A stretch of DNA of 21,585 bases, from positions 1 to 21,585 of the IMG/VR virus record IMGVR_UViG_3300042691_011097; one strand, given 5' to 3'. Source of the DNA: a virus. Shown piece after piece: positions 4,249 to 7,897 of the stretch (positions are counted from its first letter, which is position 1; each line of letters begins with the position of its first letter). Position numbers and translations under genes: made by a program. The notes below the pieces were generated by a model, which worked only from the letters and a program-made list of their open reading frames with translations, ran no database searches and was not told the DNA's origin.

Positions 4249-4431
4249 ATGACCAAAGAACAAATCATTAAAGAGTATCTTTCCACCCTTGGCCGCAAGG
4301 GCGGGAGCGTTAAGGGGCCGCAGAAGGCCCGGAAGTTATCGCGGGAGCATTACGCCAAGGTTAGCCAGGTTCAGCGGGATCGTTGGGCTAAATGGCGGGA
4401 GTCAAACGGTAGCATACCCACTGATCGGTAG
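4249..4431 (+). CDS. Small basic KGG-motif protein (60 aa)
   Basis: This 60-residue basic protein contains LGRKGGSVKGPQKARKLSRE followed by a helix with repeated Arg/Trp (QRDRWAKWR). The GRKGG motif and basic character recall small phage and bacterial proteins with KGG-type repeats and suggest nucleic-acid binding. Its function is unknown. CAGGAG lies six bases before the ATG, a good ribosome site. The two repeats at 4183-4235 sit immediately upstream. It is the last plus-strand gene of the island and converges on the leftward gene ending at 4450. Confidence 0.65.
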   Translation: MTKEQIIKEYLSTLGRKGGSVKGPQKARKLSREHYAKVSQVQRDRWAKWRESNGSIPTDR

Positions 4432-5488: not shown

Positions 5489-6505
5489 CTAGAAGCTGGA
5501 CTGGTTGGCAGTATACAAGTCCTTCTCCAACAATATCTTGCCAGCCTTTGTCAGCCGTTTCAGGTGCCGATAGAAGGTTCTCTCTGAAATCTTGCACTTA
5601 TCCATGATGTGACGGCACAGGTCGGATGCCTGCCAGCCCTTGCAACCCATCTCTCCAAGGAACCGCTCGTCACCTATGACAGGCTTGGCACCCGGCCTCT
5701 TTAGGTTGTCAGGGTTCAGGGCGTAGTTGGGTCGGAACAGGGGGTAGTGCCACTGGATCACAAAGGGGTCCATTGGGCTGAAGTTGCGTAGCGTGACATC
5801 ACAAGTGAAGGTACGCTCGTCCTCCTCATGTGGTGTCAGTACGACCAAGCTGTCAGGGTTCCGGGCGAACACCCCTGACCCGGAGAAGCGGTCGATGGCT
5901 TCCTTCGATGACGCATTGCCCTTGGCGAAATGGTGCGACAGTATGACGGACAGGTTGTGTTTGGTTGCCAGTGCCTCCAGTTCGTTCATCAGGCTCGCCA
6001 TGTCACCCGCGCTGTTCTCATCGCGGTCGCCCATAAGCATATAGTTCGGATCAAGGACGATGGCCTGGTATCCCCTGCCCTGGATGTGCTTCTCAATGAT
6101 CGGGCGGATGAATGTCAGGTCGGCGGCATAGCCCCGGAGCGTCCAGACATCGAAGTCTTTGACCTGTTCGGATGTCAGATTCTTTGCCTTGATGACATCG
6201 CCCAGGCGGTTCCTAAAACTCCACTCCTGAATCTCGAAGTTGATGAACAGCACCCGGCTCTTGCGGCACTTGTTGCCCCACCAATCCGTGCCGGTGTGCA
6301 GGCTTAGGGACAAGTCGATCAGGCTCCAGCTTTTGAAAGCCTTGCTGCCACCGCCCAGGAGCAACTTGCCCCCCTGGTGCAGCATCCCCTCGATCAGCAC
6401 CTCCGGCTCCGGCAACTTCTCCTTGGCCAAATCCTCGTACCTCTTGATCGGCGGCCACTGGTCCACCGGCTGCTTCACTCCCAATCCCACGGCTGGCTCT
6501 ATCAT
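5489..6505 (-). CDS. RepA/RecA-fold replicative helicase (AAA_25-like) with C-terminal HTH
   Basis: This 338-residue protein is a RecA-fold ATPase of the AAA_25/RepA helicase type, which unwinds DNA as a ring at the phage fork. The P-loop is LLGGGSKAFKSWSLIDLS (about 49-66), where K58 takes the Walker lysine position and the usual GKT is replaced by FKS. Walker B is AIVLDPNYML (D152), and SVILSHHFAKG (186-196) is the sensor-type motif. A C-terminal domain (CRHIMDKCKISERTFYRHLKRL) forms a helix-turn-helix. The frame stays open upstream to 6901, but ATG 6505 is chosen: it overlaps the primase stop as ATGA and has a GGAGGGG site in front. Pairing with the primase supports a helicase-primase module. 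Confidence 0.88.
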   Translation of the reverse strand: MIEPAVGLGVKQPVDQWPPIKRYEDLAKEKLPEPEVLIEGMLHQGGKLLLGGGSKAFKSWSLIDLSLSLHTGTDWWGNKCRKSRVLFINFEIQEWSFRNRLGDVIKAKNLTSEQVKDFDVWTLRGYAADLTFIRPIIEKHIQGRGYQAIVLDPNYMLMGDRDENSAGDMASLMNELEALATKHNLSVILSHHFAKGNASSKEAIDRFSGSGVFARNPDSLVVLTPHEEDERTFTCDVTLRNFSPMDPFVIQWHYPLFRPNYALNPDNLKRPGAKPVIGDERFLGEMGCKGWQASDLCRHIMDKCKISERTFYRHLKRLTKAGKILLEKDLYTANQSSF

Positions 6506-7428
6506 TTCCCCTCCTTGCAAAACCAGAGAAAACTCTGGTAGGTTGTGTCGTTTCTTTTTGCCCCCGGAATTCTCACCGGTTGGCTTGGCTTGAAAGTCGC
6601 AGGATCGCATCCGAGCGGAACAAGAAAAGCTTTTAGTTGCTCCATCCATTCTTTCTTGGGCGGGTTCTCGAACCAACCGTGCAGGCTCTTCCCACCGGTA
6701 TCGACCACGGCATACATCCTCATCTTGAATAGATCGCGCATGGCCTGGAACACCGCGCCCATCTGTGGCTTGGTCAGCGTGTCGGACTCCACCACCAGGT
6801 AGACCCTGGCATCCACGTTCTCGTTGGCGCGGCTGACCGATCCCGGCACGAACACCGCGCCGGTCGTGTAGTTGCCCACCGGCGATGGCAAGCCCATCCA
6901 CTCGTCCGCCCTGCGAAAGTTCTGTGGATGCCTGCCGCTGTCCTTAACGTCCCCGATCCAGATTAGGTCGCTCGGTTGCCACAACGTCAGGAAGCGGTGA
7001 TAGTCCTGCGCCGGATCGTCCAGCTTGACCGGACTTTCCTCGTACATATCCGCCGGGTCCCAGTTGTAGTGGGTCAGATACCGGCTCTTGTTCGATTCGG
7101 CAATCGTCTTGATTCGATCAATTATCTCGCTCTCTGGATCTTTCTCGATCACCAGTTTCACCGGATTATCCAAATGCTGGATCGGCCTGCCCATGCTGTC
7201 GTGCAGGATCGCCCGGCGCAGCTTGCGGTTTGCCTCGTCGCGGTATGCCATGCAGGAGGTGTGCCAGCAGAAGATCGTCGGCACCCCGTCCACGAACACC
7301 GTGGTATCACGCAGCCTGGTGTGGCTGGTATGCGTGGCCTCTCCTGGGCAATGGCATAGTCCGTGGTTCTCGGACTGCCAATCCACCTGACCCACGATGG
7401 CTTCGGCTTTGCGTTGATTCTCGTTCAT
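6502..7428 (-). CDS. Archaeo-eukaryotic-type primase-like protein
   Basis: The 308-residue protein is interpreted as a replicative primase. Its N-terminus carries a zinc-site pattern (CHCPG at about 25-29, then FCWHTSC at 53-59). The catalytic part shows VYLVVESDTL (about 208-217), like the acidic motif I of AEP primases, and VDTGGKSLHGWF (241-252), like the S-x-H motif II. The ending QPVRIPGAKR...Q-FLWF also recurs in this family. It overlaps the helicase by ATGA, so the two are made together. No clear Shine-Dalgarno precedes ATG 7428; instead an 88-bp gap with three stems lies upstream. Assignment rests on motifs and context. It is likely but not certain that the domain is active. Confidence 0.75.
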   Translation of the reverse strand: MNENQRKAEAIVGQVDWQSENHGLCHCPGEATHTSHTRLRDTTVFVDGVPTIFCWHTSCMAYRDEANRKLRRAILHDSMGRPIQHLDNPVKLVIEKDPESEIIDRIKTIAESNKSRYLTHYNWDPADMYEESPVKLDDPAQDYHRFLTLWQPSDLIWIGDVKDSGRHPQNFRRADEWMGLPSPVGNYTTGAVFVPGSVSRANENVDARVYLVVESDTLTKPQMGAVFQAMRDLFKMRMYAVVDTGGKSLHGWFENPPKKEWMEQLKAFLVPLGCDPATFKPSQPVRIPGAKRNDTTYQSFLWFCKEGK

Positions 7429-7439
7429 ATCAGAAATTC

Positions 7440-7517
7440 ATGCCGGTGATTCAAGGGGTGAACACACCCTCAGGAGGACAACCCGTTGCAGGATCTCCCT
7501 GCACACCACTCCGGCAT
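7440..7517 (-). ncRNA. Candidate three-stem structured RNA or leader upstream of primase
   Basis: A 7-bp outer stem (ATGCCGG at 7440-7446 with CCGGCAT at 7511-7517) encloses two hairpins: GGGTG/CACCC (7456-7460 with 7465-7469, loop of 4) and TGCAGG/CCTGCA (7487-7492 with 7498-7503, loop of 5). All stems are perfect. It fills the gap 7429-7516 and would lie in the leader of the primase mRNA. A 15-codon frame (ATG 7517) also exists but is not considered coding. Folding is by eye, and the class is unknown. Confidence 0.4.
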
Positions 7518-7897
7518 TAAATTAAACCCCTCTTCTTCTGCTCAGTCCTAACAGCGTCTTCAATCTTTTCGCATTCCGACATGGTAAATAACTGCTCTCC
7601 GCACTTGTGGCATTCATCCCTTGTAACATTCGGAACAACGAATGACTCTCCGTTTAACTTTGCAACGCTCTCCAATCTGTAATCCTTTGTTACCTTAACC
7701 ATGTTTGCCTTTCTGCAAGTTGGGCAAAGTTCCTTTGGCGTAAGCATCCCATGCTCAAGCGCAAACTCTTCCCCGGCCTTCATCATTCTTTCGGACATAT
7801 CCGAAGGACCATCCTCCAGCCACCAATCGTCCCGCGTTATGCAGATGGTGTACTCTTCTTCTCTATATCTAAACTTATGTTTTGTTGCATGGCTCAT
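7517..7897 (-). CDS. MqsA/YgiT-type zinc-finger protein
   Basis: The C-terminal half carries CPTC (C58, C61), a short beta-hairpin region ending in FVVPNV, and CHKCGE (C96, C99), then a helix (SECEKIEDAVRTEQ). This is the N-terminal zinc-domain pattern of MqsA/YgiT antitoxins. The DNA-binding HTH that normally follows is absent, and the zinc domain is instead preceded by about 55 unrelated residues with several Trp and acidic residues (DDWWLEDGPSD). The start ATG overlaps the upstream gene's stop (ATGA). With its partner at 7894-8253 it could form a toxin-antitoxin-like or regulator pair, but no toxin motif is seen, so this remains inference. Confidence 0.65.
   Translation of the reverse strand: MSHATKHKFRYREEEYTICITRDDWWLEDGPSDMSERMMKAGEEFALEHGMLTPKELCPTCRKANMVKVTKDYRLESVAKLNGESFVVPNVTRDECHKCGEQLFTMSECEKIEDAVRTEQKKRGLI

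What the first reader, a model, noticed from the sequence alone, without database searches (positions are those of the whole stretch)
7440..7517. Three-stem structured element between the zinc-finger gene and primase
Three perfect inverted repeats are nested as in a three-way junction: outer ATGCCGG/CCGGCAT, inner GGGTG/CACCC and inner TGCAGG/CCTGCA. They fill the only sizeable gap upstream of the primase-helicase pair, whose first ATG lacks a clear Shine-Dalgarno. On the leftward mRNA this could be a cis-acting leader that controls primase translation, or a small RNA. It may alternatively be a DNA cruciform, such as an initiator site.
Basis: seen in the sequence. Interest (0 to 1): 0.65.

Follow-up and report, generated by a model that had tools for sequence, protein, structure and literature searches.

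The report
Widespread three-way-junction phage RNA

Summary
The element is real and conserved. On the leftward (-) strand, 7437-7517 folds into a three-way junction: P1, P2 with a GAGAU loop, P3, and near-invariant junction letters (AUGGU, C, UGAAACA). All 80 loci found through the neighbouring primase-like protein carry it. A covariance model finds it in many further phage contigs. P1, P2 and P3 all show compensatory changes far above shuffles. G-U outnumbers A-C about 70 to 18, so the mRNA-sense strand is what folds. No Rfam family matches.

Control of primase translation is too narrow. In the window's family the element sits just before the start codon of whichever gene follows. In other phages it lies after lysozyme genes, next to tRNAs, in tandem arrays, and in frame inside Mu-like portal and another coding gene whose reading frame continues through it. 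That speaks against a self-cleaving ribozyme and a gene-specific leader. My best reading is a location-independent RNA module, probably a binding platform or decoy. The motif is shown; the function is inferred. No cultured carrier was found.

The parts
7437..7517 (-). Whole three-way-junction RNA element
   Evidence: CM R2 hit, 66 bits, E 6e-18; CM R1 hit 59 bits
7511..7517 (-). P1, 5' strand (AUGCCGG)
   Evidence: 7 of 7 pairs of helix 1 change on both sides among relatives
7440..7446 (-). P1, 3' strand (CCGGCAU)
7505..7508 (-). UGGU, 5' side of the junction; pairs with AUCA (AACA in most relatives)
   Evidence: nearly invariant, also where the search pattern did not require it
7487..7503 (-). 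P2 hairpin, UGCAGG-GAGAU-CCUGCA
   Evidence: covarying stem; with the loop left free 63/63 copies read GAGA[U/G]
7493..7497 (-). GAGAU loop of P2
7482..7484 (-). P3, 5' strand (GGG)
   Evidence: 2 of 3 pairs change on both sides
7456..7458 (-).
7447..7455 (-). Junction strand CUUGAAUCA (YYUGAAACA in most relatives)
   Evidence: conserved
6502..7428 (-). Downstream gene (308 aa, primase-like by position; no PHROG or Pfam match), ATG 11 nt after the P1 end, no Shine-Dalgarno
7517..7897 (-). Upstream gene (126 aa, weak MqsA-antitoxin-like zinc protein), its stop codon abuts the element

Best explanation
The element is a phage RNA domain of about 75 nt, transcribed within sense transcripts, that folds into a three-way junction with a fixed core (AUGGU, GAGAU loop, UGAAACA strand) and free outer stems. 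Shown: the fold, its strand, its spread over many phage lineages, usually one copy per genome, and its tolerance of very different places including the inside of translated genes. Inferred: because the neighbour hardly matters, the core is a binding platform that acts wherever it is transcribed, most likely by capturing a host (or phage) protein or RNA in trans, as a decoy or effector. In the window's family it is also the 5' leader of whatever gene comes first in the replication module, so a local effect on expression there may come on top.
For: 80/80 loci found by protein alone carry it. CM hits in diverse contigs. Covariation 192 two-sided cells against 44.5+-4.7 shuffled, and 179 against 52.9+-6.8 in the wider set. 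G-U to A-C about 70:18 without the UGGU pair. Loop GAGA[U/G] in 63/63 when unconstrained, TGGT in all but one copy when unconstrained. One copy, or a tandem pair, per record in 27 records; three in tandem in L346. Contexts: before many different genes, beside tRNAs, in frame in portal and in a second gene family. Same strand as the upstream ORF in nearly all wider copies.
Against: No partner, expression data or cultured phage. Trans action is inferred only from indifference to location. In the window's family the tight spacing to stop and start codons would fit a cis role just as well.
Confidence: 0.38

Rival explanations
1. A cis-acting leader that controls translation or stability of the first gene of the replication module; the structure sits where the ribosome binds and replaces a Shine-Dalgarno.
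For: ATG 18-31 nt after CTTGAA in 137/151 cases whatever the gene; strict Shine-Dalgarno in 2/151 against 11/45 other genes of one relative; upstream stop mostly 0-10 nt before it.
Against: Outside this family the element is not tied to a start codon: inside portal genes, between tRNAs, 40-90 nt before genes that in L234 have their own SD. SD sequences are rare in this phage family anyway.
Confidence: 0.24
2. A new small self-cleaving ribozyme that processes phage transcripts, as theta or hammerhead ribozymes do.
For: Compact junction with about 20 near-invariant unpaired letters; copies next to tRNAs; type II hammerhead in 4 of 27 element-bearing records, three on the same strand within about 1 kb.
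Against: Copies embedded in portal and another CDS keep the reading frame on both sides, so cleavage would destroy those mRNAs. Some upstream ORFs end inside the element. No permuted forms found. No Rfam ribozyme match.
Confidence: 0.18
3. A mobile palindromic element, comparable to Rickettsia palindromic elements, that inserts between genes or in frame into linkers and persists as a selfish sequence.
For: Scattered positions, in-frame copies in protein linkers, tandem arrays.
Against: Usually a single copy per genome at a position fixed within each lineage; stems keep covarying after insertion; copies are oriented with transcription.
Confidence: 0.12
4. A DNA element (cruciform, replication initiator or recombination site) read from single-stranded DNA.
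For: Stands before the replication genes in the window's family, and genes are exchanged on both sides of it.
Against: Strand-specific G-U bias, sense orientation, and other lineages where it is not near replication genes.
Confidence: 0.06
5. Chance palindromes without function.
For: Folding z-score of one sequence is only moderate on the mRNA strand.
Against: All comparative evidence.
Confidence: 0.01

Closest known systems
HDV-like theta ribozymes of gut phages (PMC10879173)
   Same: Small structured phage RNA, intergenic, sense orientation, some copies directly after tRNA genes.
   Different: No HDV match in Rfam; three-way junction instead of the HDV fold; many copies nowhere near tRNAs; some copies inside translated genes.
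Type II hammerhead ribozyme (RF02276; PMC3088659)
   Same: Three stems around a conserved core; found in some of the same phages.
   Different: Core letters differ, no match to the element at permissive E-value; here the open stem is P1 and copies tolerate translation.
Rickettsia palindromic elements (from general knowledge, not tested against sequence)
   Same: Palindromic sequence found between genes and in frame within genes.
   Different: Usually one copy per genome, complex covarying fold, in unrelated phages.
Viral RNA structures within coding regions that inhibit a host factor, such as the enterovirus RNase L inhibitor RNA (general knowledge)
   Same: A folded domain inside a translated region proposed to act on a host protein.
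   Different: No target known here; phage instead of animal virus; different fold.

Membership tests
Any Rfam 15 family | Covariance-model score at gathering threshold | tested here: not met
   No match to the element in the window or in divergent copies
Hammerhead ribozyme type II | Conserved core and type II topology (RF02276) | tested here: not met
   Not listed for the window element up to E 10 or for L234 up to E 5
Self-cleaving ribozyme in general | Site-specific cleavage in Mg2+ | not testable with these tools
   Needs an in vitro assay; copies inside translated genes argue against it
HDV-like theta ribozyme | Cleavage site within about 5 nt of a tRNA 3' end, HDV-like fold | tested here: not met
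   Only a few copies near tRNAs; no HDV match in Rfam scans
Gene-specific cis-regulatory leader or riboswitch | Same downstream gene or pathway across occurrences | tested here: not met
   Many unrelated downstream genes
Rickettsia-type palindromic element | In-frame insertion in coding genes | tested here: met
   Portal genes and a second gene family, frame kept with different P3 lengths
Rickettsia-type palindromic element | Many dispersed copies per genome | tested here: not met
   One copy or one tandem pair in each of 27 records
Conserved structured RNA | Compensatory changes in each main stem above control | tested here: met
   slid controls far lower

The most novel reading that the evidence does not exclude
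A previously undescribed class of phage RNA effector: a location-independent three-way-junction domain that many unrelated phages carry once per genome, even written into the coding sequence of a portal protein, to act on a host factor during infection.
Probability: 0.33. Interest if true: 0.92.

Novelty: categorically new. Interest (0 to 1): 0.8.

Why it matters
A structured RNA present in all sampled members of one phage family and in many unrelated phages, with near-invariant junction letters and no match in Rfam, points to an RNA function that phages need and that has not been described. Copies that obey an RNA fold and a reading frame at the same time make it a rare dual-coded element. 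If it binds a host factor it would be a general phage RNA tool; if it cleaves it would be a new ribozyme class. Either can be tested at the bench with a synthetic RNA of 80 nt.

Tried and rejected
Mis-spaced patterns (5 N instead of 6) gave nothing or chance hits; the 13 bacterial hits were inspected and rejected. Circularly permuted form: the 4 hits come from an endonuclease gene end next to the element, not a permutation. Isolated phages by DNA and protein and plasmids: none, except a doubtful 21-bit candidate in two Microcystis phages. Bacterial genomes by CM: two weak hits, inspected as L289/L290 and judged chance; by exact core pattern: none. Shine-Dalgarno display or CsrA-like GGA by the P2 loop: rejected because AGAGAU variants lack GGA(G). 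Peptide function of the frame G-x-Q-G-D-P-A: not favoured, because wobble positions are nearly invariant, GAU to GAG changes occur, and many copies are non-coding. HDV, twister, pistol, purine-riboswitch and put resemblances were compared from memory only and not pursued.

Full report
Observation. The window (G000, a virus record of 21,585 bases) has nearly all larger genes of this half on the - strand. Between a 126-aa gene (7517-7897) and a 308-aa gene (6502-7428) lies the reported stretch. The 308-aa protein has no PHROG or Pfam match; the next gene matches DNA primase/helicase families. All three inverted repeats are present. Single-sequence folding is moderately better than shuffles. Rfam gives nothing, also at E 10 apart from two chance-level matches outside the fold.

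Conservation in the family. A search with the 308-aa protein returned 80 loci. These were not selected for the element, yet every one carries it. In many it is directly before the primase-like gene; in others another gene has been put between, and the element then stands directly before that gene. Upstream genes differ too: a glycosyltransferase gene end, HNH endonucleases, a zinc protein. The element therefore stays while both neighbours are exchanged. In 27 records carrying the element, up to 47 kb long, it occurs once, or twice in tandem in five.

Structure. From 30 sequences of one subgroup I built a covariance model. It finds 85 copies in 68 chosen sources, the window with 59 bits. The model alignment shows 16 of 21 pairs with changes on both sides, 192 such cells against 44.5 in shuffles, covariation score 0.41 against 0.12, and at most 0.09 when partners are slid. 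A second, wider set gives the same picture. The model-fitted alignment leans towards its structure, but RNAalifold on its own predicts the same stems. The consensus is P1 - AUGGU - P2 with loop GAGAU - C - P3 - YYUGAAACA - P1. Leaving out the G of UGGU, G-U pairs outnumber A-C mismatches 24 to 4 and 46 to 14; this favours folding of the mRNA-sense strand.

Non-circular checks. Because several searches required parts of the core, I left parts free. With the five loop letters free, 63 of 63 copies read GAGAU or GAGAG. With UGGU not required, all but one copy have it. The last scan also brought in many new phage contigs.

Contexts. In the window's family the upstream stop codon lies mostly 0-10 nt before the element, and about 18 upstream ORFs run into it and end inside. 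The next ATG comes 18-31 nt after CTTGAA in 137 of 151 cases, without Shine-Dalgarno. In other phages the element follows a lysozyme gene and precedes a DUF3310-like gene, with a type II hammerhead within about 1 kb. It directly follows a tRNA (L263, L334) or lies between two tRNAs (L328). It occurs as three tandem copies (L346). It lies inside long genes: Mu-like portal proteins (Pfam Portal_Mu) and a second family of about 330 aa. There the frame reads G-[ATV]-Q-G-D-P-A-x-G ... P-H-E-T-K, conserved protein sequence continues on both sides, and P3 differs in length by whole codons. A related portal without the element has a shorter linker there. In portal genes with GC3 of 0.72-0.77 the core keeps GGA and GAU codons, which fits a constraint on RNA rather than protein.

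Mechanism. A self-cleaving RNA would destroy the portal mRNA, a riboswitch would keep its gene, and a DNA site would not need the mRNA strand. What fits all contexts is a folded RNA domain whose work does not depend on its neighbour, as long as it is transcribed. I therefore favour a binding platform that acts in trans, with a possible local effect in the window's family. This step is inferred; nothing here shows a partner. Translational control in cis is the strongest rival.

Distribution and limits. No convincing copy was found in isolated phages, plasmids or sampled bacterial genomes. Hosts are unknown. The literature searches did not show this motif, but the library is open-access only.

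Noticed in passing
L127:84-142(-), L190:1805-1863(-), L225 record 4251-4309(-), record of L125 28544-28604(+): Type II hammerhead ribozymes in phages that also carry the element (three over the Rfam cut-off, one below); in three of them within about 1 kb downstream on the same strand.
   Followed up: partly
L122:4022-4110 and the same place in L125, L151, L184, L242: After tandem copies of the element comes a further structured leader: a short hairpin (ATAAG/CTTAT, covarying by eye) and a larger one with conserved CTTGCG; no Rfam match.
   Followed up: no
L030, L073, L143, L002 and about 14 other loci: HNH endonuclease and other upstream ORFs run into the element and end at a stop inside it, in the frame G-x-Q-G-D-P-A.
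   Followed up: partly
L138, L185, L192, L122, L184: In phages with tandem copies the primase-like gene is not directly downstream; in some (L138, L185) a 662-679 aa replication protein follows instead, while the element and glycosyltransferase gene remain.
   Followed up: no
window:7517-7897(-): The gene upstream of the element is a weak MqsA-antitoxin-like zinc protein (Pfam 29.8 bits, cut-off 30) with no obvious toxin partner.
   Followed up: no
L263:2991-3071, L328:1592-1667: ARAGORN reports tRNA-like genes with an odd four-base anticodon (gacg) right before the element in two different phages.
   Followed up: no
L292:5988-6058 and L291:2988-3058 (Microcystis phages OR083034, PP438416): A possible distant copy (21 bits, GAGAG loop, UUGAACA) in a long intergenic gap before the terminase genes of cultured cyanophages; could be chance.
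   Followed up: partly
L070:1230-1400, L082: An inserted spacer of about 190 nt with a GC-rich hairpin separates the element from the primase-like gene; no Rfam match.
   Followed up: partly
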